DNA of 64,000 nt from Yamagishiella unicocca (taxonomy: Eukaryota; Chlorophyta; Chlorophyceae; Chlamydomonadales; Volvocaceae), in assembly GCA_003116995.1 (NCBI GenBank), contig BDSL01000106.1, positions 62,001 through 126,000 of the forward strand, read 5' to 3'. The notes beneath the pieces were generated by a model. It did no database searches. It was not told the DNA's origin and worked only from the letters and a program-made list of their open reading frames with translations. The position numbers and the translations under genes are program-made. Below are positions 29,501-56,670 of the stretch, one piece after another; the first letter of the stretch is position 1, and each line of letters begins with the position of its first letter.

Positions 29501-29912
29501 TGGCCACATACATGCCATTCTCCTTGTCCTCGATTTGCACATCAATATAGGCGGCGGACGCACCGCTAGAACCGGCCGCCGGCAGCACTTTGACCATAAC
29601 GTCGTCGCCGCCCTCCATAATCCGCTTCCCTTCCGGATCCTTGCAAATGACAAAGAGGTTGACGGGTGAGCCTGATGCGCCTCCTGCAAAGCCTGGACCT
29701 GACACGGTGCAGGTCCGGGGATCCGGCTGGCCAGGCGATTCCGAGCGCTCGCTCTCTCCATCGCTATCATCCTCGGACTCTGACTTTGGCACCTCCCTTT
29801 TTTGCTGCACGTTGGTGTCCAACCGCTTCTTCTTGGCCTCCCTGTCCTTCTCAATCTCCGCTAATAGCGCGGTCACGAGTGAACCTGCACCGGGAGGGAT
29901 AGTCGACGCCAT
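26569..29912 (-). CDS. Filamin-repeat, RRM and RS-rich RNA-binding protein
   Basis: Exons (minus): 29912-28821, 28626-28459, 28302-28130, 27872-27728, 27440-27334, 27169-26569; 761 aa, all GT-AG, frame kept. Order of domains: a charged N-terminus; a filamin-type Ig repeat at about residues 48-170 (recognised by CTVSGPGFAGGASGSP, NGMYVATYTAPSKGTYNVTV and GSPFPVFFGP); an Ala/Gly/Met-rich linker; an RRM at about 313-385 split by the first intron (LLVTSITTKVTPDQLKQLFG); and a long C-terminal RS/RE/RD domain typical of splicing factors. The layout is similar to the animal SREK1 type of SR-related protein, with an added filamin domain. Likely role: nuclear pre-mRNA splicing, with the filamin repeat as a protein-binding module. 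That role is inferred from domains; the domain calls themselves are clear. Confidence 0.9.
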
Positions 29913-31290
29913 TGTTTGAGGAAACCGCTACGCAGGGCAGCAGGTTGGAGGCCGGGCGGTGCAGAGCGCGTGCCGATCAAGCGCCGATGGGCCTGCAGTC
30001 ACCGGAGGCACGACGTCAGCAAAGCTCAGGTCTTCTGGCGTGTTACGAAAATTTGCATATAAAACATGTGTGACTTTGCCAGAAAGGAACTGACCTGCCG
30101 CGGCCGAGCCGCCAGCTAAATAGATCCGCGTGCCCTCGTGCCTTCCGTTGGCGCCTCTTCTGCCCTAAACGGCCCTAGGCCGCATACGTTGTTGCCGAGA
30201 GCGCTCAAGCTTTCTGCAGCGGGGATGAGGGTGGCGCAGGACGGGTGTTGGGGCGCCGTGGCACCTCGCAGACTTTCCGCGACGAGTGCCAACAGCAAGG
30301 ACTAGGACATAGTTCCAAAAATCAACAATTTTCTGTGAAAGTACTCAATACTATGTACTTTGTTGCCAATACGCCGTACACGCAAAAAGTCAAGCGTGGA
30401 AGAGAGTACGACTATAACAGCTTTTCCAGCAGACTGAAAGCAAATGAAATCCAGTCCGGTGCAACGACGGCCTGGCCTGAGGGGCCTGGAGGGTACGTGA
30501 CAGCCAATACACAGAATCCACTGAAGTGTTACATGCATGGCTGTCTCTCATGTTGCACGATCAAAGGGCATAGGGTTTAGGGCATATAACAAAGGGGTTT
30601 GTATCGGGACCGTGTCGGGTTCCACCTTCTCCAAGTAATGGCCAAGTCTTCTGCTGTGGTGTTTAGGCCTTCATATAAGAACTCCTCGAGAGCTTGCCAT
30701 ACGATGTGTGCAAGCGAATGGAAGGGCAGTCGCCACGTGGGCGAGACGAAAAAAACACTATCCTTCGTGATACGGATTTACATGAGCCGTCGGTATGGCG
30801 TAGCAATGTGAGCTTATTGCGAAAAAATGCACACACGGTCCTTCCTGCCTGCTACGTATGCCCTTGGGCTATAGCAGTGGCTAGCCACTCATCGGCTCGC
30901 TTTCCCTCGAAAAGAAGTAACAATGAAAAAAGTTCGAGCGGTCAATTTGGTTAGGATCACTGAACAAACACCTGTCAGAGGTTCTAATCAGCAGCTTCGA
31001 CAGGGTGAAAGAATTCCACATACTCCAAAAATGCTGGCGGTCAGAAGGTTGATCCGCCCGAAGTCACAGTCCGGTAACGCACGGGTTTGTCCTACGGTAA
31101 ACACTCCTACGTCAGCATGCGTTACATAACGGACAGGACACCGCCTGGTTGCGTAACGTCCAGCATCAAGCAACATGCCATACATAAGCATTCCCCAAGC
31201 TTGTCCTTGCTGCTACGCCGCCCGGTATGCCGTACATGATAATGAACAGCCCCAGGTACCATCCATATGTGAACATATTCACTAAATTCC
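29913..31290. other. Intergenic region between RS-protein and CEP350-like genes
   Basis: It holds the 3' end of the CEP350-like gene and the promoter side of the RNA-binding gene. The frames present are short and without motifs. A poly(A)-signal candidate for the upstream gene is noted separately at 31122-31126. Confidence 0.5.
31122..31126 (-). terminator. Candidate poly(A) signal TGTAA for the CEP350-like gene
   Basis: TGTAA on the minus strand, about 165 nt after the stop codon at 31291. TGTAA is the usual poly(A) signal of Chlamydomonas and Volvox genes. A five-base motif occurs often by chance, so the position relative to the stop is the main support. Confidence 0.4.
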
Positions 31291-32388
31291 CTAATGTGAG
31301 CCCATACGGCGCCGCCCCATCGCAGCACTCGCGCTGGCGCCACTGCGAGACGAAATCACCGGCGCCAGAAGCTCTTCCAGGTCTGACAGAACCTGTGCGG
31401 TATCGTCCACGAGGTCCGCCCAGATCAGGTCAGCCACCTCCCGCTGCACCTCAGCCTCCTCCAAGGCCAGGTCGCACCGTGCACGTTCGTCGTCTTGCGC
31501 ATCGGTGACTAGCACCTGTATCGCAGCACGCACAATCCAGGCGAAGTTAATTGCGCTACATGCGAAACGTGCAGCAACACGCGGTTGTGTCCGTCGAAAT
31601 GCGCAAGCCCCTGAGCCGATATGTGTGCCCGGTGCATACCTTGTCGATTTCTGCCGGATCACGCATGCGCATCGCCGACCAGGTCCGTAACTGCTGCTGC
31701 ACCTGCTCCACCATCTCCTTGGGACTGGGCAACGGCTTGACGATACGAGTGCGTCGCAGCCATGGCTGGCTCTGCGGCAACGCATTTGGGGAACAGGTCG
31801 CGTTTCTCAGTATGCGGAGATGCGATGCGAGCGCACGAGTGTCCTAAGCACGAGTATCTGAATCCGGTTTATCGTCACGCCGGACGCTGCCTATATACAA
31901 TCCCCTTCCTGATCATGATTTTACCCACGCACCTCAACCCGATGGGCTGCCCGGTATATGGAGAGGAGCGACTCGCTGATAGCATCGTAGATCATCTTAT
32001 TGTGGATGTGCTGGGCTTCACTGGCGTGCACCAACCGCCGCTCCTGGTCGAGGAAACCCTCCAGGCTCAAAGGATCCGCTCCGGGCACCAGGAACTGCAC
32101 AAACGAGGGGTGAGAGGTTGATAGCACGGAAGGAAGTCAGGACATGGCAAGTTATACCGCTGATTGAAAATGCATTCAACCAGCTCAGGCACTACACAGA
32201 ACACGCGCGATAACATCTAAGGCGCATGCTATAATGATGGAGGATGGCCAGACCATTTCAGACATTTAGCGCACCTCAGGCCTGTTGTCCATGAAATGCT
32301 CCATAACTTGATCAGCATACTCCGCCACTGCCGCGTGGCCAGTGGCCACGGCCGGCACATTGTCGCGCTCAATGGCAGCCTGGTCAAT
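31291..32388 (-). other. C-terminal CEP350/DUF4378-like domain of the giant gene
   Basis: The last four exons encode about 210 residues. They contain HNKMIYDAISESLLSIY, then RTRIVKPLPSPKEMVEQV, DKVLVTDAQDDE, and EVADLIWADLVDDTAQVL. From memory, human CEP350 ends with the same succession: a K-L-x-F-D-x-x-x-E helix, a conserved proline/lysine linker, an acidic D-x-I-L-V segment, and a final helix ending in L-I-x-D-T-x-D-V-L. Plant TRM proteins, which bind the FOP relative TON1, end in the related DUF4378. This segment is the main basis for the gene name. Confidence 0.75.
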
Positions 32389-35300
32389 CTGCAGTGGTGG
32401 CGGTGGCGAGCGTGCAGGACGGTCCAATCGAGGGCTATTTCCTTTGGCACGAAGTAAGCAACGCAGTCTAGCCCGTACGGGAAAGTATTTCAGACACCCA
32501 CGTTGGGTGGCGCCATGACGACGCATTTGGTGGAACCACACCGACGCGATTAGAGTGAGCGGCAAAACACCCACCTCTGGCGCAATATAGCCGGAAAGGT
32601 CAGGCTGCCAGCCATCTTCGAGCTCAGTGTCTTCGTCCGCACCTCCCCACCTGCAAAAGCAGGACGGTGGAGGGCAATGTGTCAGACACGGCGTGCAGGG
32701 ATACGACGGGCCTTATAGCCGACTTGCGTTCCCAAATGTCGCCTCCCGCCTACCGGACTGATGCACAATATTATGAAGAGGGTGCCCGGAATCAATTAGC
32801 TCAAACGCGTACCCCTCTGGCAACGCAATGCAACGCGCAATCAAGACCTACCCGAGGTCTTCATCACTGTTGAGGCCAACGCCACTGTCGTTGGGCGTTT
32901 CGTCCGCATTGCTGGTCGTCATGGCCAGGTCGCGGTCAGAGCGCTCTGGCCCCAACGCTGGCAACGCAGACGCCGTGGCCGAGGCCGTGCGGAGATTCGA
33001 TGCACCCGGTGGTTCGTACAGTGATCGCCTTGGGGAACCAAGAGAACCGCTGTCACTGGGTATTGGGCTTGGCAGGTCCAGACCCACTTCTGCACGGCAT
33101 TTCCAGTGGGATTCGAAATAAGACGTCAGAGGCATAGTGTAGAGTACGTGCGTCACACATAATGGTAAGGTGAGATGTCGGCATACGCATGTCAGACAGG
33201 GAATTCGGCCGTAAGGATGTATTCTAAGGCAACGGCAGGACATTACTGTCACAAGCCCATCGAAAGTATGCAACAGAAATTGACCCCCAGAACCAGCACG
33301 GATGGACTTCCATTGCTTGGCGCGGAAGCCGACGCACTTACCCTCATCCACCCCGGTTCCGGTGCCCAGTTCGATGTCGCCATCTAGGTCGTCCACGCTC
33401 ATGCTTATCGATTCATCCCCACCACTTGAACCGCGACTGCGGCCCTCAGGTGATTTCTATGCAAGGGCAGCGAGGGCCGCGGCGGTAAGACGCGCAAAAA
33501 CGTGTGTACGTGCACAGTGGAGACGCTTGGCCCGGAAAAACAAACAGTTGGCCCATATAGAGGCTCACCCGCGGCAGTCGTGTACGGTATGTACAAAACT
33601 ACAGGGGCAGGCAAGCCCTATGGGCTCCGTCAGCTAAGTGATGGGGACGTGCATGACGATGCCTACCTCTTTCGCCTCATCCTGCGCGTCGTCATGGTGC
33701 GATGTGACCTGGGACAACCGGTGCTTCGTCGACCGCGGCGATGACAGGGACCCAGATTGCGCTGTTGCCGCAGTTTGCTGCTCCCTTGGCTCCGCAATGC
33801 TCACCATAGCCTCGATGGCGTCCGCCACAAGCTCCTGCGGTGAGACAGAAGCCATTTTTGACGCAATGGTGCAGTATGGGGCGAGGCATGCTATGATATT
33901 TCAGAGAACACCATTGTTCAAAGGACTCTAGAGCCCCGGTATCAAGACACGGTATCAAGACACGGTATCAACAAAGGCAGGAGGCGACCTCAGCTGTCGT
34001 CACCGACCCCTAGGGCGAATAATCCAAATTTTGTACAAATTGCAGCATATGTTCATGCCAGGCACCATGACGAACCAGGACTGGACACAAACTCCCTACC
34101 TTAACAGTGGATTCTGTGATCTGGTCCACAATTTCGTCGCGACTGGGTGGCACACCTACGACTGCCTCCTCCACCTCGGAAGGGCCCTCTTCCATGTCAC
34201 TCTGGAAAGACTCGCTGGTGGCTGCGGCCGCCGCAGCCGCTGCTGCTGCCAATGCGGTCGGTGGTAGCACTGTCGTTGGAAGAATTCCTGCCATGGAAGC
34301 GCGTGCCGAAGTGGACGAGGGTGTGCCGCCCTCGTGCTCCTGTGTTTCGGAGTCCCCTCCCCAGTCCCGCGACTGGTAGGGCGATACAAGACGTGACTTG
34401 GAGCGTGACGCTGCCAACATCTCCTCGATCTCAGATTCGAAGTCGCCCTGTCGCAAGCAGGAACAAATGACATCAGGTGGCTTGACACCATGCAAGGCAC
34501 CTCCACACAGTCTATATGCTAAGTCCCTTTTGCACAAGGTTTCAAATGAATTTCGAAAGCTATCGCATAATCGCGTACAAACAAACCCACCTTTGGAAGG
34601 TCCGCCTCGGTTTCAGGTTGGTCAAGCAGGGCCTGAGCAGGGCAATAGAGGAACGGTTGAACACGTCATCTACACGACGAGGATGGTATCTTCAAATTAC
34701 GGGGTTTAAGGTGGAGGGTCCGTTAATTACCTGGAATACAGGCTTGATTGATGCCCCTGCCAGTCCTCGGGGGCCCAGGCTCCCACTGCCAAACTCCTCT
34801 TCGTCATCCGAGCCCGCAAATGCACGGAGCTGGTCTAGAAGCCCGCCTTTCAGCGCAGGATCGTCATCAACGACAGTTTCAGTCGCCGCCTCATCTCCGG
34901 GTGGGCTAGGCGTCGGCAGCGAGGCAGCTATCGGCGGAGCAGCGGCCACGGAGGTCGCCCCGGCGCCTTCAGGCTTGTAAACCGCACGGTACTCCAGGCC
35001 CTGCGAGTCGCAACAACAAAAAACCGAGCTTACTCTGGACAGAACCTTACTACCCGCATCCCATTCGCAGAAAAGCTGCTCTTATGCATTTGAAACAAGC
35101 ATCTATTCCATCCCAATGAAAACACAACCTTCCGCAGTGGATTTCCCAGATTTCCACCCTGATGTGTCCCTGTCTCTCGCACCTGCCCATCGTCGTCTTC
35201 GTCATCGCCTAGCCCTGAACGCGGTAGCGGCCCAAGACTGGTTTCGCCGTGCACGCCGCCAGCGCTGCTTCGCTGTGATGTAGGCGATGACACGGTAGGC

Positions 35301-38300
35301 GAGGAAGGCACTTCGCCCACAGTGGGCTTCGACTCGACCGCCGTTTCGTCCTTTTGTTCCTGGCTACCTCGCCCAACGGGTGACGCTGCAGCTTGGCCGC
35401 TTTCAGGCGCGGCGGCTTCACGTGCTGTCATGGCGAAAGCGGGTGGAGCTGGCGAGCTAACGGCTGTGGATGGTTGGAGTGTTGGAAGGCGGTCAATGCT
35501 TTCGTCAACAGAGAACGGGTCGTTTGCTTCTGCCTCAGGCTCCTCGTCCACGACCTGCACGCATCCAAACCACAGGGCGTTGTTAGCGACGCCGCTTATG
35601 TGTCCAAGTGAGCAGCATAGGATAGTGCGATACAACGTACTGTGCGATCCAGTGTCATAGCCAATCGGTTAGCTACAAGGAATCCAACCGCACACACCTC
35701 GCTGGCCACCTCGGACATCTCGATTGACAGCGATTTCTCAGCTGCAGGTTGTGCTGATACCGACTCCTCAGCTGTAGGCTTCGGTACTTGGGCCGGTGCC
35801 TCGGAAGCCGCTACTTCCCGAGCAGAGGGTGCACCCAATCCTGCTTCCGTATCTTCGTCGGCGTCAGCATGTTCCAAGACCTGCGAAAATACGGGTGAAA
35901 CGTGGGATTCTAGTTCCGTGCAAACGGGTTTGTCTCTGATTGCAGCAAGCCACGGCTTGGGCGTTTTCATAAACCGGTAACATTATTTGCACGTACTGTG
36001 GCCAATGACCAACTCGCAAGCTACCGTGCGCTATACCGCCGCACTAGGAAGGGCTATGGGTTACATACCTTGTACTTGGTAAGGTCGTCTGAAAGGCCCG
36101 ACGCTGAGATGTGCGAGTACTCGGCAGCAGCACCGTCCTCGTCATCATCGCCGCCAATAGCTGTGAGGACGCCTCAAAGTCAGCACGCACCACGTAGAAG
36201 TTCAAGTATCAGAAGGCGCAAAGCACATCTGCCCTGTCACACCGCACTCCCGCCAAAGCTACGTAAGCCCACGGCATGCATGCTCACCTTGCGACTCGAA
36301 TGCCGCCGCCATCTCCGCCAATTCGTCTGAGTCATCAGCGGCCAACGCCGCGCTGGTGTACATGTCGTATTCCACCACCGATTGCCGCCCTCCACTGCCT
36401 TCGCTGACAGGAGCCTCCAGATCGTCGCTGTATTCGGCGCTTGGCTCGCCGCTAGCTGCTGCACAACGGGATGGGCGTATGTGAAAGTCAATTGAAGGTA
36501 CGACAAAAGTGACTGAGACTGCAAGGACTTCATTTGGTGCATCCCTCGCCAGTTGCTAGCTGTAGAACCATCGCCCCGATGGACATCATACCCAAAGCGA
36601 CTAATGGGATTAACCGTTTACGTGAGCCCTTAAATCAGCGCACCTGCAGGCACGGGCTGCTTGGACGCTGTTGCAGAAGCATGCTGCTCGGGCTCAGACG
36701 GCTCCTTGGCAGGAGGGTCAGCAACGACAGCAGGAGGTCCTGCTGCTGCCCGCTCCTGCACCTCTGACTCCAGTGGCTTCGTGGGTTCATCATGCGACTG
36801 GGGAGGCCGCGGAATGGCCTCGTCGCTTGCTTCTGAGGCGGGCACGTCCTCGTCCAGCACCTCGTCAACCACCTCCTCCGCTTCGGCCGTTGGCCCAGCA
36901 TCCTGCTTCTGCTCGTTGTCGTCATCATTGCCCGACATGTGTAGAGCACGGGCCGACGGAGTCACCACCTCGCTGCTGGTCTCGGCATCCTCGCCCTCTT
37001 GGTCCTGTGATTCCCGCAACGTTGCAAGCCGGAAAGAGAGCCCGGAGCGCAGACCAAAGGGAGAGCCGGAAGATGGGCCGCTGCCAAGGTCGCCACTCCG
37101 AACACGGAAGCTGTGGCTTGGCGTCATGGCCTCGGACGCTGCGAAGTCATCGGGCAGTATGCCAGGTGAGCGCGCTCTGGTATGACAACAACACGACGAC
37201 AATACGACAGTTAAGAGACTGTCCTCAGGCACATCCCCGTGCCAGAGCTACCCGTCTGAAGCCACTACCGTGGCCGATGCACTTTGTGCCTCACCTTCAA
37301 TCAGGTCGGCACCGAGCATCTCCAGCAAGCCGCTGCCCTCGCCCGCAGTCATGCTCATGTCCACCAAATCAAGCTCTCCTGGGGGACAACGAACGGGCAG
37401 GTGGGAGGAGGGTAGCGGTTAGCACTCAACGAATGACACAGGTTGGAAAGTTGCATTGCGTCAGAAAATGCGGAATCTATTAGTGGCCCTTTACAGCTCA
37501 TCCGCAACCTTTAAGGTCTCACCCTCCAGCCCGTCCTCCTCTTCCAGCGGAGTTTGATAGGTGCGCCACCGTCGTGACTCAATCTGTCGTGTCTGTTGGA
37601 TGCCCCGGCCGCGGGGCACGGAGATGATGCCGCTATCCTCTCCCTCTACCTCACTGACAGCACTGGTGGACGCCTCCCCGGCAGCGGCTGCAGGCAGGGC
37701 ACGCGTGGAGGCCTCCGTAGTGAGCTGGGCAGCTGACGCAGCGTCCTGGATGGCTGCAGCCGCGGGCAGAGGGGCCGGTGGCACATCCAAGCCGAGGTCT
37801 GAGAAGTCCAGATCCTCGTCCTGGATGTCCGCCTCGGACACTTCGTCCGCTGGCTCTTCCCCGGCTTCATCTGTGGCATCTGCGCTTGCTTCGGCCTCGT
37901 CATCGGAGTAGGCTGGCGGAGACGGTGGCTGACTGATTGGATGACTGACGACGTTCGCTTCGTCCTGTGGCACCTGGGCAGCAGCGCTAATGTTTTCCAC
38001 CTCGAGCTCACTAGCAAGGCCCGTGAAATCACGCGTGTAGTCATCCAGGCCCCGCTCGTCACTGTTGGAAGCAGCTGCAGGTGAGGCACCCTCAGCCTGC
38101 TGCTCGATGACAGGTGCTGCTGCCGCTGCCACACCCGACAGCACTTCTGCTGACGGCTCAGAGGACACTGTACCAGACGTCGAGCTCTCCTCATCCACGG
38201 AGAACACAGACCCAGACTCCTGGTCTGACATCGTCTTACCACTGGCATCGGGCCCTGCTGCGGCGGCCAACTGCTCTTGGTCAGCCGCAACACTGAGAGC

Positions 38301-41300
38301 CGCAGGGGCGGGTAGGACACGCGCCAGCTGATCTTGCTTCTTGCTGGCTTCAGCCTTCAGTGCAGCGTCAAGTGGCTCGCGGGCCTGCCTTGCAGCAGCA
38401 GCCAACGAAGAAGATGACGCCTGCGCTGCGGCATACTTGTCATCGCTCACTTCAGCAGCTGCGCTGAACTCTTCCTCTGCCGGTTCCGCGTCCGGAAAGT
38501 CCTCACTGTACTGTCCAGAGTTGTCGTCGCTGTCCGAGGCGGGACCGTAACGCTGGCTGACTTCCAAGCCCACGGACTGGGCTGCCGTCGGTGGCAAAAC
38601 GCGGGCAACCGGTGCACCACTACCCGTACTGTATTGCTGCTCATCATCATCCGGCTCAGGCTCGTCATCCTCCTCGTAAGCAACATCCTCCGCAATGTCC
38701 AAGGCCAAGGACTCTGCCATGCTGGCTACAGCCGCAACTGGAACGGTTTCAAGTTCGACAGGAGGTACGCTCGTTATGGTAGGCTGGAAGGTGCTTGACG
38801 ATGCAAAATCATCGGAGTACAGCCGGGAGCCTGTTGTTTCGATGCAGGCAGGGGGTACCGAACGGTTAGCAAAATAGGGCAAACAAGGACGCATTGGCAA
38901 AGCAATCTGATTTGCGCGGTTCTCGCCAGCGCACCTGTGGCGTCTAGGTGGTGCCCGCCATCCTCCTCTTCCTCAACGACGCTGAGAGTAGTGCGCTCCA
39001 TAGCGGTCGGCCCTGCCAAAGACAAAAGTTTGGATGTTAAGGGATACGACTTCCCGCATTGTACACCCCGCCGAAAAACAACGTAACCAATGGACACGAA
39101 TATTACAGGTTTCAATGGGGTTTCCTTCATGCAGAGAGGACCTGCTCAAACCCCGCCCGGTGCCTCCCTCCCTACCGATAAGCTGTGTTTCCGAAGGCTC
39201 GCCTTCTTCGAAGTCCTCCTCGTAAGTTGCAGCCGACATTGACGATGCTTGCTGCTGCAGTGGAGCGGCGGGCCTTACAGATGCGGACGAGGCCTCAGCA
39301 CCCATTGGAGGCCGCCGTGTGCCTAGTGAGGAGGTCGAGGCAACTTCCAAAAGGGACGTCTGCGCCAAGAGCCCCGAAGCATCCTGCAGGGGTTGCACTT
39401 TATCTAAGATACAATCCTTCTCAATTGAAGGTTTACTTGCGCCAATAGCAGCAAAGCGTAACAGCACGTACATAATTGGCGTTATACCCGTACTTGCCTG
39501 AACAATTTCGCCAGTTGACACCAGCTGACTGCCAGACCCTCCAGTTGACGCCACCCGACTTCCAGACCCGGAGCCACCCGACCGCTCAAGCGACCGCTGT
39601 GAGGATGCCTCTACCTGCACCTCCATGAGAGACGGCTGGAAATCCAGATCGTAATCTTCCACCTCCTGCAACAGATGTGTACCACCGAAGATATGTACCA
39701 CCACAACGGTGAAATTGTCATATTAACGGGTGTAAGTGTACGATAGCGTCATCTCAACACAGGACAGCAAGCTGCTTTCATTCGCCTGAACTGGTACAGC
39801 GATCCCTGTTCACCAATCGCAACAGGACATACACACAGGGTCACAGACCTTGAGTCACGTTCGCCATGCCTGCCTTCACTGTTGCGCTCACCATGTCGTC
39901 AGGTTTGCAACCTGACGACGTTAAACCCTTACACGCGTCAACTGCCTACCTCTGACTGTTGAACCTGCACCTCAGCCAGCACTTCAGGCGGGTGGCCGAC
40001 AGTAGATGAAGAGTGCTGCGCCGCTATGTCATCCACAATTTCATCTGAGACCGTAACCTTCGCTTCACCGAACTCGTCCGTGGCAACCTATGTACCAGTG
40101 GACAAGCACATGACTCGTCATACCCAGATGTGGTGTGTACGGCACTTCATATGGTGCGTTTCCTTGCAGATCCGCTTCGGATTTCCCATGAAATAGAGTG
40201 CAGCAACACCAAGATGCGGAAAAGCAAATTTCAGCAAAGCCACGGAGTCACTTTGATGCACTGGGTGCTCTTGTCTGTACGACCACATCAGTACTCACCA
40301 TGTCGATATCCGTCTCCTTGCTGATGACCTCGACTGGCTCTAATCCTGCCAAGTCCACTTCAGAGTCCTCATCATCCACACCATCCTCATCCATGGAGTA
40401 CGATGGCAGATCCGATTGCTGTGCGCTTTCTTCAACCTCCTCCTCGGGCTTCAACTCCTCTAACTGCGGCTGTATCTCCTCCTCCGGCTCCTCCTCTGTT
40501 TCATCTGCGTGCTGATGTAGGTCCTCCCCCAGCTCAAGAGGCAGCTCCGACTGCCGCTGCGGCTCCTCCTCCTCTTCCATACCTGTCCCCTCCAGCTGCT
40601 CCACCTCAGACGCCTCATCGACTTCATTGTAAGATACATCGCTGTGCTGAACATGAAGCTCCATCACCTTTTCATCTTCATCTGTGATGGCACTGTCATT
40701 GCCTGCCGCCCTAGGTGCGTCATCGTCAATGACCTCGTCACCTAGACTGCTTACTGCAGCGTTGGCCATACCAACGGCCGCATGCTCTTCAGACACCTCG
40801 CTGGACAGGCTCCGTTGTGTTACCACCTCCTTCACCGAGGACTGATGACTGTCCTCCTGGATCACGTCAGGCAGCGAGCTGTCCTGTGCCGTCGGCAGAT
40901 CAGCACTGTGTATGCTTGGGGTTATGGAATCACCAATAGTGTCAACACTTTGCAGGAATTCCCCAACTGGAACACTCTCCTCTTGGCTTACGCCATGAGG
41001 GGCTGTTGGCGAAGAGCTAGACAGCCCCGTCTCCAGCTCTGCACTGTGAATGCTGGGTGCAACTGAGGGGCTGTCAACATCAGCTGTTGTGAAAAACTCA
41101 TCAGCTAACTCCTGTTGACTGCCCTCCTGTGACTCTGTAGCGGTGGAGCCAGGCGGAGAAGCTGCAAGCTCCACACTTTTGGATGGCGAGCTGGGACTCA
41201 CTGATGGAACATCAAGGCCCTGAACTGACAGGACTTCCTGCTTCGTGACAAGGCGGAAAAGGGCAAATAGGGTCGTAAGTGGCTTGCATGGCAGTGTTAA

Positions 41301-44300: not shown

Positions 44301-47300
44301 AAAGCTTTGCGAAACTTTCGCTACATCCTCCACGCCAGAGGAGTCGGGCTGATTTGACGCAACTGGAGGGAGGTCGCGCTTGACCGGAACGCTCCGGCCA
44401 TGTGTTTTGCCTTGCAATCCGGCAAGTTGCTTTTGCAGCTGCTCTACAGCCGCCTGCTTGGCAAGCACCTTCAACCTGCACAGCGTTGCCACAAACCGGA
44501 TACACTTAACGAACGGGTCCGGTCAATGTATGCCACTGTAAGGTGTAAGCGTAAAAAACAACAAACCGAACCACCTCGTACCGGCGGTGCTCGATTTCCT
44601 TCTGACGCAGTTGGCGTGTCAACTCTTCTTGCCGCCGCTCAAGTTCCTGGGACAGCGCTGAAAGCTCACTGTCGCCGGGGTCAAGCTTATCGCTCCTTGT
44701 AGCCTTGGCGGTTTTCCCTGCAGAGGTACACGGTGGCTCCGAAATGGGAACCGCAGGCGCAATGCTGGGATGCCATGCGGTGTGTCCTGTATCAAGCTGT
44801 TTCCTGTCACGTGCACGCGGCCTTTTATCATTCATTCTACCTCATCCCTCCCTATCCGACATCAAAGCCGCCCCGCGTTCCTAATTGGACCCATCTTACG
44901 TTGCGGTGGTATACGCGAGCGTGAAGGCCCCTGGACGCTCCGTACAGAAGCATTAAAGTCCTCGCTGTACTGCGGCTCAGTAGCTGCCACTGAACCGCTG
45001 CTTTGCTGGCGTTGCTTGATGGGATCCGCATCCGTGCTGCCAGAGCGGCGGTAATCGTCATCAGTGAGCACTGAATGCGAATGGCCACCAGATGTCCCAG
45101 CGCGGCGACTTGAGGCATCCTCGACTTCGTCCATGACGCTGCCTGTTGTAGGAGTTTCCAGCACGTAATGGCACGGAAAACCTTATAAGAAGGAATGTCC
45201 GGTCATAGAAAGCGAAAGCCGGCACGTATGCCTCAATGGACGTTGTGTGCTGCATACGGCTCAATTCGGGGAGGCAGACAAGCACGCAACACCTTCGCAC
45301 ATGAGCCGCGCGAACGCAACGCAATTTGTCCCGTTTCCCCGTCAAAATGAGTCATGCTAACCTCTGTTTGATGTCAAGCAACGGATAACTGCTGAACGAA
45401 TCATAACACATGGAAAGAACGCACAGCGCGCACGCAGGCAGGCATCACAATTAGAAGCATACGCTGGGTGTTCTGGTAACTTTTTCCCGTAATTGGAACT
45501 CTCAGTGCTTACTCTGCTGGCGACTGGCCCGCGGTGGGCGACCGTGGGATGGATGGAGCTGGGTGCGGGATTGCATAGCACTTGATGACTCAAATTGGTC
45601 GCTGTACTCATGGGTGACCTCAGGTACTTCAGACCCTGCGGTTATGCGTTTACAGATGGGAGTGACCATCTTCGCATTATATACCAAGGATAATGCGAAG
45701 GGGTCCAGCAGCTGCTGGCACGTTTGCATACCTTGAGAGCTCTCAGCCACTCTGCCGGAAGTTGACTCTGGTTGCCATGCCGACTGCATTTCTATCACAC
45801 TACCCGAAACCATGGATTGCGGATCTGCTAGCCTTTCGTCCACGCTTCCCGAAGCATTTGGCGGTCGCTCCGTGGACGTTTCCTCTACGACGCTTGTAGA
45901 CGTCGAGGGCTGCCGTGGTGGCGCTGTGGGACGCGATACTTGCGCCGTCGGTGCAGCTTGCGGTCGCTCAGCGAGTGGCTTTCCGGTGAACAGAGTTACG
46001 CTTTCGCGCATGGTGGCAGTGGCAGCTGGATTAGTGATATGCGCCAACCGGTAGAGCTGCTCCATCATTAGCTGCTGACGGGCGAACTCCGCCTTGATGG
46101 TACTGATCTTACGGTTAATGTATGTGGCGTCGGCATCATGCTGGACCTGTCGATACACCAGGGAGAGGGAGGGGTGGAGATGTTATGATCTACTTAGTAT
46201 CACCTGAGGTGCACAAAACAAGCACGCGCGTCATGTACACCCGATGTTGGCCATCGCCTCTACAAGCCTTGCATGTCAACACTAACTGAACAACGTACCC
46301 ACCGACCTGTACAAGCCGCTGCGCGCGTATGATGGCCTGGCGCTTCTGCGGATGCGCCTCCACCGCCAGCTCTGACTCGAGCTGCTGCATCTTAGTATCA
46401 GCGCGATTGTTTACGTCATGCAGACGGTCCGTCAGCAAGTTCACTTCTAGGCGCATGCGCGTCTCGGCATCGGCGGCGTACGACAGCATCATAGCGTCAT
46501 CAAGCTCAAGGCCACCTGCCAAGAACAGGACAGGGGATGCAGCGGCTTATATTATTAAGCAGGTTAAATTGCGCGCAAAAAACGGTTACGTGCAGTTTAA
46601 GTGGCTCCCGCTTCTAATAACATGGCACATGCGCACCATCAATGGAGGCCCGCATATTCAGCGGGGAGGCCTCCGCTGGTGAAGCATCGCGACGTTGCGC
46701 TGCAGAGCGAGCGGTGACGGGAGTGGACATGATGCCAGCCATATCGTCTCGGCGGCCACGACCTCCGACAGCTGGAGCAGCCGCTTTCTTTGGCTCCTCC
46801 TGCTTGGCTGGCCGATGCTGCAAGTGGGGACTACTCCGGGAGGTCCCCAGCCCACTTTCATCTCCAATTTCCTGGCTGTAGCTCTGCGGCTCTTCCGTCC
46901 GTACATCGCTCTCCACCTCCGCTGACTGCGTGGAAACCGTAGTGGGTGCGCGAGGCTCTTGCTGCTGCCGGGGGCGCCGACCTGAAGGCTCACTCGCGAC
47001 CTCGTATGCACTGTAGTCCTCTTGCAGGGTCCGCGTCGCGTAATGGCTGGACGTAACCTCTTCCGTGATAGCCTCTTCCTCCTCATTCTCAAACTCGCTA
47101 CTGTAATTTGGCTCGCTCGTCACGTCACCAAAGGTGCTATGCCGGCGATGTGACTGGCTTGACACGGTGGAAGGGCGCCGGCTCTTGAGGCGGAGGGAGG
47201 AGTGGATCGCCGGCACGCTCTCCTGTATGGAACTGGAGTCTCGGGTGTCGGCCCCACCGATGGACGTGTACGGCACGCTGTCGGCGACAGTAGTACTGCT

Positions 47301-50300
47301 CCGACGACGAGAGGCATCATGCGCACGACGAGTTGTGCCCTCCGACCCAATGCTCTCCGCAATGGAGATAGTGCTCGTCTGGTGCATTGCAGGGCGCACC
47401 GGCCGGCGGCTGGGAGCCACAGCGGGCAGATCTGACTCGTCGTCTTCATTGACGCTTTCCGGTATGGAAAACGTGCTCGCCTGCAGAGACAGCAAGGGAA
47501 TCTATTTTTTATGATCTATGGCATAGTGTGGGCATACAGCAAGATCGATAGCAGCTGCAGAAGCAAGTAATGAGGCTACTGGGTCTGCAGGAAGCGGATC
47601 CCTCAGGTCCATTGCCATCACAAAACCGCTCCAAATGTCTACGTCCCAAGGCGTACCTGCTGGCGCAATCCCAACCTCGACGGTGGATGCTCCGAGTGCA
47701 CGCTCTCAGCGACTGAGGTCGAGCTGATCGGGCGGATACTGGCGCGTGAGGGCTGGCGATCACGGTGATAGTCGGACACCCTCTCCGGTATTGACGCTGC
47801 CATGCTGGTCTGCAGCGATACGTCCCCCTTTGATCTGTACTGCGAGCCAAAAGTGTCCTCCTCTTCCACATCCTCTTCTTCCTCCTCATTGACACTTTCG
47901 GGTACAGACATGTGACTGACCTGCCGGTGAGCCGTACGCGAAGTGGAGCGGCCTGCACAAGGTATTGTACGGACTTCATTAATGAAATCCGTTACTATCC
48001 CGTTGCCGCAGCACGGGGCCTCTGCCTGTCATGCAGGCTAGGAAATGTATCGCACCTGATATGAAGCTACTCTGCATCATCTCTGCATCTTCAAAGTCAT
48101 CTGTGTAATCTGACGTGACATTGCTCGTAGCTGAAGAACGACGGTGGAAGGAAACGGCGCTCGCCCTGCCAGGCCCTGGGCTGCCGGAACGGTTCGCCGG
48201 CCTCACGTGGGGCGGTGATGTTGACCGGAGTGACGTCTGCGGCAGCTGCGGTGGCGAGCCTGCCCGAAGTGAGGTCTGTGGCGGCGATCCTGCCCGCAGG
48301 GAAGTCTGCGGTGGCGATCCTGCGCGCTGCGTGGGCTGAGGAGGCGAGCCTGCCCGAAGCGAAGTCTCTGGTGGCGATCCTGCCCGCAGGGAAGTCTGCG
48401 GTGGCGAGCCTGCCCGCCGCGAGGGCTGAGGTGGCGAGCCTGCCCGCAGGGAGATCTGAGGCATCTGGGGTGGGGAGGCAGCCCGAGGTGAGGAACCAGC
48501 CCGCAGGGAGGTCTGCGGCAGCTGGGGCGGGCTGCTGCTGCGCAGGATTGACACAGGGTGTGACGGACCCACCTACAACGGACAGAAACAGGGAGTTCGT
48601 GACAGTATGACCCAGTAACACGCGTATTTGGAACGATGAATCAGTGCATGTTAGCATAGATAACAATTACTGTCTGAAGGGCAATTCAAGGGCAATCATC
48701 ACACCTGCCTACTTGGGAATCATAGCCAAAACTAGACCGTCAAGTGCGCACGAGTACCTGCACGCCGATCTCTGGCTTGGGTCGTGGAGGCGACTGCGGG
48801 GTCGTTTGCACGGTGGCGTGGGCGACCTTGTTGCGACTGAGCTGTTCCACGAACATGGTCGCCACCTCGTGAAGGTGGCCAAGGCCCTCTCTCCGAATTT
48901 CGTTGCGAAGATTCTCCTCGAGCGTGTGAAACTTGGCGTCCTGCGGAAATGGTAGGCGAGTACGCGTGAAGCAAATAAAGTAAAACGCAAAGTGATCAAA
49001 GCATTGCGCCCCTGCGCATAGCAATTTTATTTTTCTTGTTAGGCGTATCGAAACACACAGCATGCCCAAGAAGCAACTGATCGGGCAACACAAAACTAGA
49101 ACTGCATAGAACCGCGACCACCCAGATGGCCAGTTTTACACACGCTTAACACGCAAGCAGGGGTGATCCTGCCTGTTTTATCTATCACTGCGCTCATATG
49201 CGAACTTTTGTCGTTGCCGTCCATGCCGAGGCGGATGTAGGAGCCTTAGGCACAAAAAAACACAAACCGTGATTTGACAGCAGTATTATACAGAACGGTG
49301 GGCTGCCCGTTCGGCATTCGACAGGAAAGCAGAGGGGTTTGGCTGAGCTGCTCCCAAACAGGCACACCCTGGCCTGAGCCCGAGAATAGCTTTCGCACTG
49401 CTTCGTTGCTACGATCTCAAGACAAGCGCCCCAGCAAACATCTTTCTGGCATTCGTGGTGTAGCATAGGAGCAATGTGTCTTAGAGTAAGGTATGGTAGG
49501 GTATCTATATAATAAAATACCGCGGCGCACATAGGACGCGAGACGGCGGGAAGCACTCTTCAATTTGACGGTATCGTAAACTACCAAATATTGAGAACCT
49601 TCGGCTTTACCCACCATGTCAGCTTGCGTATGCGCGATGAGATTCAGCTGGGTTTCAGCTGCAGCCGTCTGGTCAAGCCGCTGGGCTATTCGATGCGCCT
49701 CACGCTGCACAGCCGCAATTGCGCGCGCGTTCTGTAGTTGCTGCAGCTCCAGCTCAGCTGCATCCAGCTCCTCGTACCTACGGACAATTTGTCCATGGGA
49801 GCATAGTGCAGATGTGAGGGAGGCGATGAGCGCACGTCAGCTCTGAACACATTACACAATATCCAATTTTGGTCCATTAGCCATACGACATGGTTTAATG
49901 CGACACAGCACGCATTTAAGACCGAACCCACATCTCCCTCAAGCTGTATGGCAGGACGCTAATCCGTGAACTGCTGGAAACCGTACTCCGTGCCGGCACG
50001 CACGTTTTCATTGTGTCTTGCATCTGTCTGAAAAGCTCCGTGGGCGCCAACCGCACTCGTTCTGGTGGCCCCTGTGCTTCGTCCACGAAAGAAACCGTGC
50101 GCGGCCTTGAAGGCGGACTGGCCATCGCCCCAAGAAAGCTGCTGTTACCTCCCTCGGTACCATCGTAGCCGGGTTGGGCAGCGGCTCCCCCACCAGACCG
50201 CTTTTTCTCAAGGCTTGCCAGCTGTTCGGTCAATGTTGGCCCCGCGAGCGGCACTTCACGAAGCCCTTGCGCCATGTCAACCTGCTGCTGCAGGGATGCG

Positions 50301-53300
50301 AGCGGTGCAGAGCCGTACGTCGCAGAGAATGACAATGGCTGTTTTGATCCATGTCCTCCATCGCTTCCAAGGGGCCCCGTCGACGACGCTGAGAGAAGAA
50401 CAAACGGCGGCAGGCTATTAGTGAGCTGCTGTGCGGCGGAACCGTTTGGGTCCGCGTGATCGATACGCCCGTCGCCTGCACGCGACATAGGGCACAATAT
50501 GGACAGGATTAAGCAAATCTCAGTGTGCGCGCCTTTGACACTGGACCGAGTAGACACTATCGGCCAGAATCTCACCTACGCCAGTGTCCTTAAGGGTCTT
50601 CTTAGGGGACGAGGGAAGGCTGGGCGAGTGCTGCTGCTGCGGCTGCACCAGCTCCCTCGAGAACACAAGCTCTGGCCCACGTCGTCTTGGAAAGAGCAAT
50701 ACCTCTGCAGCTGGACGGGGCGAAGGCAGAGGCACTGTTGCGTCGCCGCCAGCGTACGCCCTTACGGTTTGGGTCTCCTGCTCGGCCATTTGACGTGACT
50801 GTCCGTCAAACAGCGGCGGTGAGGACAGCTGAATAATCGTCGGTCGTGCCGGCAAGCGCCCCTTATGGGCTATCAGACTGATGATGCTCATCGGGTCGCC
50901 TGAGGTCACGACACAGGGCAGAGGAGGGTTGTAACGAGGCATGGAAACAAGGGGCACAAACTTGATGTCCTATGATGTTACACGGTTGCCGCATGCATAG
51001 CGTCATGTCCTCGCATTTACAAACATTGGGATTTGGCCCTTACCTGACTTTAAGAACTGCATTGTTCCAAGTTCCTCGCCATCATCTTCTTCTGCGGTGT
51101 CCAGCTCATCTTCGGATTCGGACCCCTGAAACGCTTGCTCCCGCTGCTCCTCTGCCCGCTTTGCGGCTTCGGCCTGCACGGGAGACGATTGGGGTGGTCG
51201 GCTGCCAACATGATGACACGTAGTACATGCGAAGGCATAAGGCGATACAGCACCTGAAGCCGACTGCGCTGCTTCCCAGGACAGGCGTTAGCATACCTTG
51301 AGCAGTTCACGCTGTGCTGGCCGTAAGCGAAGCGGGCTATTTGCCTTCTCGTACTCGTTCACAACGGCTTCACAGGCCCGCATCGGTGTGTCAGGAGCGC
51401 TGCTGATCGAACTGCTACAAGTGCGAAGGCAAGGCAAGAAGTTGTACACGAGCATTGCTGGTTAGCCCAGCGAAGGCGCCAATAGCTTGCTATGTATCAT
51501 GCAAGGCATACCTGCTGCCGCCTGGTTCGCCGTACGCTACATCCGACTGTCCGCTCTCGTCGTTCCTTACTGGCGCGCGTGGCAGCAGCTTAATACCGCC
51601 ACCACGAGATGGGGAACCGGTGTCAGGCTCCTCCTCCCACCTATCCCGCTCTCGGTCCAGCGACAATCGCTGCGCCAGCTGCGGATTTTCCTCCAACATG
51701 CCGTGCAGTTCCGCAATGGTCAACACCCGCTGGCCGTATGTCGACTCTCCACCGCTGCTGTTACCGTCATCATCTGTGCTTTCTGCGCTGAATGTAGCAT
51801 TCTCGTACGGAAGCCCAGACGAAGCCTCGACGCTTTCTGAAGTGACTTGAGCGTTAGTAGGCGGTATTGGAATTTGGATTACGGGTGCCGCAGGTACTTG
51901 TTTGCTGGGTGATGAGGGCGACACCGATTGGTCCTGTCCCGGCATTGCGAAGGCATGATGCGGATGGGCATCCTGCACGATGGGCAACGACGAGGCGGAA
52001 TGAAAAGGTTCGCGTTCCAAAATCACCACGCTGCCCTTTCAGTATGCCGAAGCCGCAACAAGTAAAAGGAAATGGCGTGTGTGCCCGGTCTCAGCACGGT
52101 AACCGTTGCGATGTTTCAAATCCCTTACCGCATCAGGATATCCCACAGCATCTCGCGGCGTTCGACGCGCTAGGCTATCCAAGCCACCCGCGTCCAGTAG
52201 TCTTGGGGCATCCTGGTCCCGGGTGAAAGCACTGCCGCTGCCGTGGCTTTTGCCTGAAGCGGTGCTATTGGCGAGCAAGCTAGGCGTCGTCTCAATGGCT
52301 GCATTGTTAGGCCCGAGATCGCTACCGATCGTGCTCGCACGCTCGCCCAGGCCCATCAGATCTCCATCAGAGACAACGCCGCTGCCATAAGCATCGCGCT
52401 GGCTTTGGTTGGCAACGCTGTCCGTGCCAGTAAGCGATCTCAGTCCTGCGGTAGTACCACCCATGCTGCTGTCTGTGCCGGCGTCATAAATGCTGTTGCC
52501 GCCAGTTCGCAATTTCTTGTGAGCAGCTGTGGGCCACGACACCGTGGTGCGAAATTCCACGTCCGCCTGATTTCCTTCGTCGAATTGTTGCACCTGCGCC
52601 TTGCTCGGCGAGCCCTGCAAAATATCGCGACACAAAATCCCGTGACTGTTAACCGCACCGCATGGTTACATCTTTCGTTCCGGAGGGTCACACACATCAG
52701 GGCGTGCTCAACTGGAACTAAGCAGGCGATATTCCCATCATTGTCAACTAGTTTGTCCGTTTTCTCCCCCTAGTTCATCGCAATGACACACCTGGTAGCT
52801 TGGATCAAACGCCGACAGCATGTGGTCCACCGGCAACCCTGTGGGAATCACCGCTATCGGAGGTGGATAAGGAAGGAGGGAGCCAGCCATGGAAGCACGC
52901 AGCGAACGTTCGTGCTGCTGAGGGTCCGGCCACGCCTGCAAAGAAGCTCCATGCGCGCCCTGCTGCTGCAAGGCTCCCAATCGAGCGCTGAGTTGGAGCG
53001 CCAGATCCCAAAGATCTCCGACGTGCCGCTCGTTGCGCGCCTGCTGCATTCCGGCCTGCACAGCTGTTGGGTGATCGGGGGACAGTTGTCCGCTTCCGCG
53101 AGCGATCGTCTGACCCGCCATGCCACCTTGCCGCCGCCTGTTGGCTGAGACGGTGCGAGAAGCTGATCGTGAACGCCGGGTCTGTTGCTTTGCCCGCTTT
53201 GGAGGCGAGCGGGAGCGAGAATTGTGGGAGGCCGCCTGGTGCTTGCGTCCGGCAGTCGGGCTGCACCGACGCCCTCGGGATGTGTCACGACCGCGAGACG

Positions 53301-56300
53301 TGTCGCGACCACGCGAACTATCCCGGCGCTCCGCCTGCACCGGATGCATAGTCCACGGCAAGTAATGAATGTCTCGAATGGTCCGCGCTGAACATACCAC
53401 ACCGGAAAAGAAGCCCAACAACCCAGGTATCTAACTCACCGCCTGCAGTCCTCGCAGGTTCTGCTCATATTGCTTGCGCGCCGCCAGCCGTGCCTCCATC
53501 TCAATTGCACGCAGGACTTCAGGCGCGATAGGTTGACCAGCCTGTTTAATGCGCAACAATTACCTTATTGGGGAAATGCGTCATATATGCTCACGCGAGA
53601 AGGAAAGAGCAATCGCAAAGGCGAAGGAAGTTAGGGAGACAGCGCACCTGGAACTGTCGCGTCGCTGGTTGTGAAGACGCAGGCCTGCCAGTGATGAGGG
53701 GCCGCGTGGGCCGCGCCGAGCTTGCACGATACACGCGCCCATTATGTTCCGAAACACCCGGGTCATGAACGCGCACCACCTGGCGGAATTTTGTATAAAT
53801 ACGAAATACGAGGAGTCAACTGGTACACTTGGCAGGACCAGACGTCAACACGAGGGTTATATCTTTATTCTGCCCCACAAGCTACCGCCCCGCAACAGAT
53901 GGCACGAGTGGCAGCTCAGACTGGCAATTCGCCCACCTGCGGACCGTTGCCCACGTCGTCATCATCAATGGGATGTCCGTAATTGTCCATTAGCCAGGCC
54001 CTGCTACCACGTGAGCGGTTTGGTGAAGCAGCTCCGTACTGCCTCTCCTGGCGTCGGCGATCCGCTACCTCCTGTTGGCATAGAACACAACGGTGAGCTG
54101 TAATGACGCCTTTGGGGACACCCTGCAGCGTGTGGATGTAGGTACTTAAGTCATCGAGGAGCATAGGGACGCCTTGTCGCTTCGAAAACATGAATGAATA
54201 TGGACGCAGCGCAAGCGTTCAGCCCATATCCCAACACCCATTGCGCCCGCTTTGGTGCCACACAGACATCATTCGTGTCCCTACCATCCGCATAGCATCG
54301 CTCATATGATACGGCAGTGCCCTTTCGGACACCAAGTCGGAGTCTGGCTCCCCTTGTGGCGGGCGTATCGGCGGCGCGCCCCTGGGCAGTCTGGTTGCTA
54401 CTCCATCCTCCGTCGGTAGGACGTCTACCCATGCTGGTTTGGGTCCCTTGTAATCATGGGCATTGTCCTTTGAGGTCTCCGCGTACTTCTGCGCCCGCTG
54501 CTTATCCATGAAGGGAAGCAGGCAGTGCAACGTGACGTACGGCAACCGTTGGTCAATATGTTCCAACGTTGCAACAAGGCATGATTTCCGTTAGAATGGC
54601 GAAAACAATTCACGAGGATTGAGGCAAATGCCAGCGTATAGACGAACACATACCTCACGAGCTTTGGCCATCTCAACCTTAAGCACCTTAAGCTGCGCCG
54701 TCTTCGCCTCCAGCTGCGCTGCCTTTTCCTGCTGTTGCTTAGCGGCCATATCCTTCGCTTTGCGGTCCATGTACTCCTGAACGTGAAGGTATATGGTCTC
54801 ATCATACGAGCCAGGGCATTCCTGGCCAGCCGATTCCCTACCCGACATCATGTGTACCCTTGACGCCGATTGTGCGTACGTCGTTGTCCCCACTATAACA
54901 CGTACCTTCAACTGACAGCGCCCGAGTGGGTCCAAAGTCCGCATTCGTGCAGCTGCTGCACCGGGGCTCGCATTACGGGGCGGTGGCGCGTCTACCGCTG
55001 CCCTAGACACCACCTCCCGAGGGGCGCCAGCTGGCATCTCTCCTGTAACTGGAGAATTTCTTTGCCTCCGCATATTCTGGCGCCAAGGCCGAGGGTCAGC
55101 CGGCTTCTTCTCTGACGCATCGTGCCCCCCGGAGATGGCCTGCAACAACCATGCATCATGAATGAAAGCGAGGAGCAGACTGTGACAATAACAATGCTTT
55201 TGACTTTAGAGGCGCTAGTTACCTGCATGCCTTGCAAGCCAGCCGGACCGCCAGCAGGCAACGCCGGCTTCTTTCGCCTGACGGAAGCAGGCCTGACCTC
55301 CGGCACATGCGTTACCTCAGCTGTGGAGGCCTCCGCTTCCTCCGCCAGCTGGGCAGCTAGCGCGTCTTGCTCAGCCTGATGCATGGTACGGTGGGAACGC
55401 CCAACAAGTGATGTGCCGTCGCAAGGATAGTACTGTTGTGTAGTTCACGGCATGGCTCGTCCTTGCCATCCTTGATTGCGATCACAACGTGTACCGCATT
55501 TGTGCGCACCTTCAACCGCCGCTCCTTCTCCGCGCGGAGCAGATCTTGCTCCCGCTGTAACCGGTGCACAAAAGCGGACACGGCAGCCTGTCGTTGCATG
55601 GCTTGTGTCTGTTTCTGAGCCACTGGATTAGGCAGGATCTGCATGCAGTTTTGAGTGGTGGGTGCGATCAGGGCAATATCCAGCGGCTGCCTTGTACGTC
55701 AACATACTCCCTTTGGCGAATTGTCCCAAGCTCCTTACATTGAGGTCGCGCTTGATGGCTGCACCCTTAGCTGGTGCAGCTGGCAGGTGTGACGGTCGCA
55801 CTGCTGACCGCGAGCGTGGCCGACCCGCAAATGCTGCCGCAGACAGCCCAGGTGCTTCCTGCGGGTTTGCTGTTGCTGGCCGCATGAGCACGCGTGCGGG
55901 TTCTAGGCCCTGTCGGGTGGGCGGCTGTGCCGCATGACTGTCGGCGAACTCCGGCTCGTAGCTTGGAGGCCCCATGTCGTCCGTATCCTCCACCTGTTCC
56001 ACATCATTCGCCTCCACCACCACAGCGGCTGCAGCTGATGCGCGTGTTTTCTTAAGCCGAGCTTTCTGCTCCATGGCTTTGAGCTGTGCAAGCTCAAGCG
56101 GCGCGAAGCTTGCCACTAATTTCACCAGCTCCGCATTAATGGGATGGGGTCGCCTGCGCGGTGGGGCTGGCTCATATGAGTCCTCGCTGTTTGGGGCTCC
56201 GCCTGATGACGCGGTACCTCGCCGGCTGGAACCCCCGCCTGGCAACGCAGTCACGGCCCCAGGCTGGACGCCTGGAAGGCCTGTATGCTGCTCGCCAGAC

Positions 56301-56670
56301 CTGCGCCGCGTGGAGCGCCCAGCATCTGCAAGCGAGCCAAAGAGTGCACTTATGTTAAGTTTGGGACCCAGGTCACGGGTAGTACCAGGCTTCCACCTTG
56401 AGAGACACGCCCGTGTGCCTCGTGCCAAACCGGCCACACCTTCAGGAGGTCCCTTTACGACCTGTGCCACGGAAATGATGCGACCAGATACGTGGCCCGA
56501 TTTTCCCTTGGCGCCTGAGCACAGTTTGCCAATGGGGCTCCGTCAACGCGGTAGTCATTGCTCGGACGAACGCGCCAATCGGTGTAAATTGGCATCAACG
56601 TGCTGCGGGCATAGACCCAGCTCTTACCGCCATCCTCGCCTGGTCCCACGGAGGGAGCCTGCAAAGGCAT
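31291..56670 (-). CDS. CEP350: Giant centriolar/basal-body protein, CEP350 (CAP350)-like
   Basis: About 54 exons, about 5100 aa. Minus-strand exons: 56670-56628, 56325-55739, 55638-55510, 55375-55223, 55139-54906, 54776-54654, 54497-54285, 54071-53937, 53779-53648, 53541-53440, 53334-52792, 52614-52129, 52035-51512, 51414-51297, 51173-51044, 50899-50576, 50475-50004, 49777-49615, 48940-48758, 48572-48056, 47952-47657, 47480-46637, 46515-46307, 46146-45732, 45635-45513, 45142-44900, 44717-44575, 44453-44135, 44052-43925, 43830-43738, 43483-42944, 42004-41633, 41237-40299, 40087-39950, 39665-39176, 39012-38935, 38830-37523, 37378-37295, 37174-36644, 36458-36288, 36160-36069, 35880-35698, 35554-35183, 35000-34731, 34632-34591, 34447-34100, 33834-33667, 33456-33342, 33089-32852, 32650-32575, 32388-32275, 32094-31933, 31771-31640, 31515-31291. 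The frame is kept across every junction. The protein is mostly disordered and acidic, with short coiled coils, scattered Y-S-x-D/E-F motifs, and a CEP350-type C-terminus. CEP350 anchors FOP and microtubules at centrioles; that role is inferred. The first two exons are the least certain. Confidence 0.82.
33937..33972 (+). repeat. 13-bp intronic direct repeat
   Basis: Three tandem units of CGGTATCAAGACA, the last truncated, in an intron of the CEP350-like gene. Confidence 0.9.
39384..39497 (-). other. Possible in-frame GC-AG intron in the CEP350-like gene
   Basis: The long exon 39665-39176 contains CAG|GCAAGT, the classical GC donor context, and ends this inner segment with CCCCTGCAG. The 114 nt between are a multiple of three without a stop, so the segment can be kept or removed. 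Its translation (for example ITPIMYVLLRFAAIG) is hydrophobic and unlike the Ser/acidic sequence on both sides, which favours an intron. Confidence 0.55.
41848..41890 (-). repeat. 15-bp coding repeat
   Basis: Tandem ACTCCGGACGGATAC-type units (plus-strand view) encode a V-R-S-V/I/A-S pentapeptide array in the CEP350-like protein, just after an acidic HEED stretch. Confidence 0.8.
42005..42943 (-). other. Unusually long intron (939 nt) of the CEP350-like gene
   Basis: It separates exons 43483-42944 and 42004-41633 and is the longest intron in the model. Its 3' half is pyrimidine-rich on the coding strand. No frame with a recognisable motif was found inside on either strand. Confidence 0.7.
48230..48500 (-). 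repeat. 30-bp coding minisatellite, L-R-A-G-S-P-P-Q array
   Basis: About nine tandem 30-bp units encode ten-residue repeats of the form LRAGSPPQTS in the CEP350-like protein (exon 48572-48056). Unit variants include a swap to SRR or TQR at the start. The frame is preserved in every unit. The repeated basic Ser-Pro sequence is of the kind found in microtubule-binding and CDK-phosphorylated regions; that role is inferred. Confidence 0.9.

What the first reader, a model, noticed from the sequence alone, without database searches (positions are those of the whole stretch)
31291..56670. One reading frame can be followed through about 54 exons: a 5.1 kaa CEP350-like protein
Each predicted junction restores the frame and exon lengths sum to a multiple of three (15312 nt), which is very unlikely if the region held several genes. 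Human CEP350 is about 3100 aa, so this algal form would be much larger. In ciliated algae it would be a candidate basal-body scaffold.
Basis: partly seen in the sequence, partly recalled or inferred. Interest (0 to 1): 0.8.

Follow-up and report, generated by a model that had tools for sequence, protein, structure and literature searches.

The report
Giant algal DUF4378 scaffold protein gene
A green-alga gene split into 56 coding exons encodes one protein of about 5,060 amino acids that ends in a domain typical of land-plant microtubule-scaffold proteins, so it is a plausible basal-body or microtubule scaffold, but it lacks the hallmark CAP-Gly domain of the animal centrosome protein CEP350.

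Summary
A minus-strand gene runs from ATG 56670 to stop 31291; my own gene finder gave the same two ends, and after orthologue-guided correction of 3 of 55 junctions it has 56 coding exons, 15,183 nt and 5,060 aa. Homology settles it: four volvocine algae each have one annotated protein of 4,799-5,071 aa, aligned along its whole length at 48-54% identity and without a filamin domain.

The C-terminus is DUF4378 (PF14309, 45 bits, cut-off 25.7; 5 of 5 sequences), the family under which land-plant TRM proteins are annotated. CEP350 is reported to share TRM motifs, including the FOP-binding M2. No CAP-Gly domain was found in the protein, and the two found in the genome look like tubulin cofactors B and E. 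A TRM/CEP350-type scaffold is likely; CEP350 orthology is not shown. The orthologues already stand in databases as 'hypothetical' or 'DUF4378' proteins.

The parts
31291..56670 (-). whole coding region, ATG 56670 to stop 31291: 56 coding exons, 15,183 nt, 5,060 aa
   Evidence: exon list printed; four homologues along the whole length
56628..56670 (-). first coding exon with the start codon
   Evidence: N-terminus MPLQ, as in Pleodorina starrii
56066..56143 (-). conserved N-terminal segment, residues 101-126 (begins PINAELVKLVASF), in exon 3
   Evidence: stretch passing 0.55 invariance over 5 sequences (peak 0.65); coordinates worked out by hand from the exon table
48809..50092 (-). most conserved block, residues about 1457-1584, spread over exons 18-20; predicted as one long helix
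   Evidence: peak 0.95 invariance in a 40-residue average over 5 sequences; homologous Pleodorina piece: one 112-residue helix, mean pLDDT 79.3, pTM 0.34
48219..48539 (-). RAGSPPQ-type tandem repeats, residues about 1613-1719, in exon 21
   Evidence: 10 units by pattern in this protein, 0 in each of the 4 homologues
   Evidence: 14 copies of the broad motif against a mean of 0.86 in 300 shuffles; 7 of the core motif against 0.02; several at the same alignment columns in 5 of 5 sequences
39498..39665 (-). exon 36, one 56-residue unit with a YDLDF motif; Volvox and Pleodorina have three such motifs here
   Evidence: 29-44 extra residues in the 4 homologues
39384..39497 (-). GC-AG intron 36
   Evidence: donor cagGCAAGT
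31402..32025 (-). DUF4378 domain (PF14309), residues about 4912-5024 of 5060, over exons 54-56
   Evidence: E 1.7e-11, 45.2 bits, profile 53-166 of 166; 5 of 5 homologous C-termini
31122..31126 (-). TGTAA, possible poly(A) signal about 165 nt after the stop
   Evidence: that TGTAA is the green-algal signal is recalled, and the word also occurs 14 times elsewhere at 30900-57000 (13 in introns, 1 in an exon)

Best explanation
The region holds one nuclear gene of a volvocine green alga for a largely low-complexity scaffold of about 5,060 aa. Shown here: one chain of 56 exons with four homologues along the whole length; one very conserved long-helix block (residues about 1457-1584); several shorter coiled-coil-like stretches; 14 copies of a short YSxDF-type motif; and a single C-terminal DUF4378. 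Inferred: the C-terminal DUF4378/M2-type end docks a FOP/TON1-like LisH protein, the long helix dimerises the chain, and the disordered middle with its repeated acidic-aromatic motifs is a set of landing sites for client proteins. The protein would then be a large adaptor between microtubules and a FOP/TON1-type module, most likely at basal bodies or their rootlet microtubules, working as CEP350 does in animals and TRM proteins do in land plants.
For: Gene. Homologues P0001 Pleodorina starrii 4921 aa, P0002 Volvox carteri 4799, P0003 Astrephomene gubernaculifera 5000, P0004 Chlamydomonas schloesseri 5071, whole-length alignment at 48-54% identity. DUF4378 above its curated cut-off, in 5 of 5. 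Conserved block and motif; long helix. M3-M4-M2 motifs of TRMs are reported in CAP350, M2 recruits FOP and binds plant TON1 (PMC6300067 and PMC4357431, passages). FOP binds the CEP350 C-terminus (PMC5493781, PMC8354638, passages). TRMs are annotated as DUF4378/DUF3741 (PMC12574335, passages).
Against: No CAP-Gly. No M3-like (LMG) motif shared by the homologues, and the M4-like word in 2 of 5 only (motif strings recalled). FOP_dimer family gave no hit in this genome, although that search misses split domains: it also missed DUF4378, which is there. That DUF4378 contains M2 is recalled, not tested. No localisation or interaction data. The C-terminal model is too poor to use (pLDDT 57.9). Neither the single C-terminal sequence nor the profile matched any solved structure significantly.
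Confidence: 0.5

Rival explanations
1. A TRM-type protein of cortical or rootlet microtubules or of the division plane, on the plant side of the family, not the counterpart of animal CEP350 at basal bodies.
For: DUF4378 is the land-plant TRM annotation, the organism is a green alga, and no CAP-Gly was found.
Against: Size about 5,060 aa with one DUF4378; no Pfam match to the other plant TRM domains in the pieces scanned; a shared M3-like motif was not found.
Confidence: 0.25
2. The chain, here and in the annotated homologues, joins two or more neighbouring genes.
For: The same finder does join this gene to the filamin gene when it is given the whole window. 17 of 55 junctions have no gapless support. 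The homologues are gene predictions too. Introns 19 and 32 are long (674 and 939 nt).
Against: Four homologues from different genera are each a single protein over the whole stretch. The 674-nt intron is spanned without a gap in 4 of 4 and the 939-nt one in 2 of 4.
Confidence: 0.08
3. A single giant protein, but DUF4378 here has another use and the protein works elsewhere in the cell, for example in the flagellum or the nucleus.
For: No function is known for any homologue (names); none of the four accessions occurs in the paper library.
Against: All links in print for this domain that I saw are to microtubule or centrosome scaffolds (passages); the papers searched are the open-licence set only.
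Confidence: 0.17

Closest known systems
Volvocine 'hypothetical'/'DUF4378 domain-containing' proteins (Volvox carteri VOLCADRAFT_105672, Pleodorina PLESTF_000551400, Astrephomene Agub_g14432, Chlamydomonas schloesseri HYH02_007605)
   Same: Whole-length homologues, 48-54% identity, DUF4378 at the end
   Different: Species differences in repeat number (exon 21 and exon 36 units); none has a described function that I found
Land-plant TRM (TONNEAU1-recruiting motif) proteins
   Same: C-terminal DUF4378
   Different: Far larger (TRM sizes recalled); M3-like motif not shared by the homologues; interaction with a TON1-like protein untested
Animal CEP350/CAP350
   Same: Very large, low-complexity and coiled-coil-like, conserved C-terminal end; shares TRM motifs with plants according to print
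   Different: CAP-Gly found in CEP350 (2coz appears under that name) and not here; C-termini not compared directly

Membership tests
DUF4378 (PF14309) | match above the curated score | tested here: met
   45.2 bits against 25.7; 5 of 5 members match
CEP350/CAP350 | CAP-Gly domain | tested here: not met
CEP350/CAP350 | C-terminal FOP-binding M2 region homologous to that of animals | not tested
   no animal CEP350 C-terminus could be fetched; three protein searches found only volvocine relatives or nothing
CEP350/CAP350 | M3 and M4 motifs besides M2 | tested here: inconclusive
   LMG word in 2 of 5 at different places, P[VI]S[VI]L word in 2 of 5; motif strings recalled
CEP350/CAP350 | EB1-binding sites and N-terminal microtubule binding | tested here: inconclusive
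   SxIP/SxLP-like words in basic context: 3 in the window protein, 0, 0, 1 and 1 in the homologues; microtubule binding not testable here
CEP350/CAP350 | distal centriole/basal-body location | not testable with these tools
   needs microscopy
TRM | C-terminal DUF4378/M2 | tested here: met
   profile matched to its last position, 166 of 166; that M2 lies inside it is recalled
TRM | conserved M3 (VARLMGL-type) motif | tested here: not met
   no Pfam match in the pieces scanned, no shared LMG word
TRM | binding to TON1/FOP-like protein | not testable with these tools
   needs an interaction assay; FOP_dimer not found in the genome, but the search misses split domains

The most novel reading that the evidence does not exclude
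Volvocine algae keep a 5,000-residue relative of the common ancestor of animal CEP350 and land-plant TRM proteins: one protein that carries the FOP/TON1-docking DUF4378/M2 end without CAP-Gly, and uses an array of YSxDF motifs, a docking motif that I did not find described, to load basal-body or rootlet clients.
Probability: 0.3. Interest if true: 0.65.

Novelty: new member of a known kind. Interest (0 to 1): 0.4.

Why it matters
Land-plant TRM/TON1 and animal CEP350/FOP are held to be related modules, one at cortical microtubules, the other at centrioles (passages). A conserved DUF4378 giant in flagellate green algae, which are tractable in the laboratory, would let one ask directly which of the two jobs is the older one. 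It also shows that frame continuity over many exons is no evidence against several genes unless homologues are compared.

Tried and rejected
Frame continuity as proof of one gene: rejected, because the same finder ran into the next gene on the whole window. DUF4378 as a Pfam search of the whole genome in six frames: 0 hits although the gene is there, since the domain is split over exons; so the negative FOP_dimer search proves nothing, and the count of two CAP-Gly places is a lower bound. A second copy of the DUF4378 end: none at E below 0.37 beyond this gene's own three exons, out of 7 matches. Homologue searches: C-terminal piece alone, none of 3,990 candidates (only proteins of 137-436 aa are candidates); conserved helix block, none of 445 candidates at E up to 1, but that length range ended just below the four known homologues, so it had no positive control. 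Pfam AAA_7 at E 0.0026 in the conserved block is below its cut-off and rejected. Solved structures: no significant match for the C-terminus. Structure of the C-terminus: too poor for a fold search, none run. Papers: CEP350 with DUF4378, 0 papers; DUF4378 with algae, 2 papers, the one that I looked into only a peptide table; YSEDF-type words, 21 papers, the 20 listed look unrelated by title; the four homologue accessions, 0; CEP350 with 'green alga' and 'centriole', 1 paper, which lists CEP350 as a basal-body gene of Stentor. The crude coiled-coil count is a home-made rule, not COILS.

Full report
What was claimed.

The gene. I wrote a splice-aware Viterbi gene finder (codon usage, donor and acceptor profiles, an intergenic state) and trained it on this region. 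It returned one gene with the same start and stop. With GC donors allowed it has 56 coding exons, 15,273 nt and 5,090 aa; 55 of 56 exons score best in the frame that the chain assigns. Score 1637.4 against 131.5 for the other strand and at most 28.8 in 20 dinucleotide shuffles; the training on this region makes the contrast look better than it is. Orthologue-guided correction changed 3 of 55 junctions and gives 56 exons, 15,183 nt, 5,060 aa, introns of 82-939 nt, one with a GC donor.

The control that went against the argument. On the whole 64-kb window the same finder skipped the stop at 31291, entered the downstream gene and produced a chain of 92 exons, 26,100 nt and 8,700 aa, also divisible by three. 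The downstream gene carries a filamin repeat (PF00630, E 1.3e-18, window 28817-29912 minus). So frame continuity and divisibility by three cannot exclude several genes.

What does support one gene. A protein search with the C-terminal part found four proteins at E up to 0.001 among 7,978 scored candidates: Pleodorina starrii 4921 aa, Volvox carteri 4799 aa, Astrephomene gubernaculifera 5000 aa, Chlamydomonas schloesseri 5071 aa; the only precomputed Pfam domain in each is DUF4378. They align along the whole window protein at 48-54% identity, with aligned residues in all 56 exons. They have no filamin domain and end within about 15 residues of the same place; three of four also begin alike. 38 of 55 junctions are spanned without gap in at least two homologues, 17 of 55 in none. 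These homologues are themselves gene predictions, so cDNA remains the final test. In an unrooted five-sequence tree the window protein stands between Pleodorina+Volvox and Astrephomene+C. schloesseri, so the source is a volvocine alga (inferred). The genome held is 133,378,104 bases in 1,415 contigs, with the window at C106:62001-126000.

Anatomy. The protein is rich in S, A, E, P, G and D (67% of residues are S, T, P, G, A, E, D or Q; 824 acidic against 463 basic). 1,047 of 5,090 positions are invariant in five sequences; the most conserved block lies at residues 1457-1535 (peak 0.95 in a 40-residue average), followed by the C-terminal region. For the Pleodorina version of the block AlphaFold2 gives one helix of 112 residues (mean pLDDT 79.3, pTM 0.34). 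A core motif Y[ST]x[DE]F occurs 7 times here and 5-7 times in each homologue against 0.02-0.03 in shuffles; with the broader form there are 14 here and 11-15 in the homologues, and five of the places (alignment columns 2803, 3159, 4186, 4314 and 4492) hold it in 5 of 5 sequences. A word search found no description of it among the 20 papers listed of 21.

Identity. The last 249 residues match DUF4378 at E 1.7e-11, 45.2 bits, cut-off 25.7, up to the last profile position; 5 of 5 homologous C-termini match, best E 5.8e-15. No CAP-Gly was found. Two CAP-Gly places elsewhere in the genome resemble tubulin chaperone E (best hit 9m1k, E 6.9e-22) and, for the second, tubulin-specific chaperones (best hits 4b6m, E 5.6e-30, and 1whg, chaperone B, E 1.4e-24); the CEP350 CAP-Gly structure 2coz is only a distant hit there (E 2.6e-07). 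The search reads exon by exon, so a split CAP-Gly could be missed.

Known systems. Print, seen as passages: CAP350 is a CAP-Gly protein that binds microtubules by its N-terminal domain, and carries TRM motifs M3, M4 and M2; M2 recruits FOP and binds plant TON1 (PMC4357431; PMC6300067). FOP, CEP350 and CEP19 form a module at the distal mother centriole needed for cilium formation (PMC5493781, abstract and passages). CEP350 loss leads to centriole fragmentation through WDR90 (PMC12704290, passages). TRMs are annotated as DUF4378/DUF3741 (PMC12574335, passages). So the domain points to a microtubule-organising scaffold of the TRM/CEP350 kind; it does not decide between the two, and CAP-Gly, a defining feature of CEP350, is not met.

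Most likely mechanism. Shown: giant chain, conserved long helix, motif array, DUF4378 end. Inferred: the end docks a FOP/TON1-like protein, the helix dimerises, and the array holds clients, at basal bodies or their microtubule rootlets. I give this 0.5; a TRM-type cortical role 0.25; another role 0.17; fused gene models 0.08.

Novelty. The homologues are already in public databases without a function; the window adds one more species. Hence a new member of a known kind, with moderate interest.

Noticed in passing
window 28817-29912 (-), gene possibly down to 9953: Neighbouring gene begins with a filamin repeat (PF00630, E 1.3e-18); the finder models 33 exons to 9953, unverified.
   Followed up: partly
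window 60717-61432 (-): Two exons, each with an HMG box (PF00505, E 5.9e-15 and 4.3e-14): an HMG-box protein upstream of the giant gene.
   Followed up: partly
window 48219-48539 (-): RAGSPPQ-type tandem repeats: 10 units in this species, 0 by the same pattern in each of 4 homologues, so a recent expansion.
   Followed up: partly
window 39498-39665 (-): One exon-sized unit with a YxxDF motif; Volvox and Pleodorina show three such motifs at this place, which suggests exon duplication or loss.
   Followed up: partly
window 39384-39497 (-): GC-AG intron, the only one of 55 introns.
   Followed up: yes
window 58343-59113 (-): Open frame of 257 aa with no Pfam match at E up to 0.01.
   Followed up: partly
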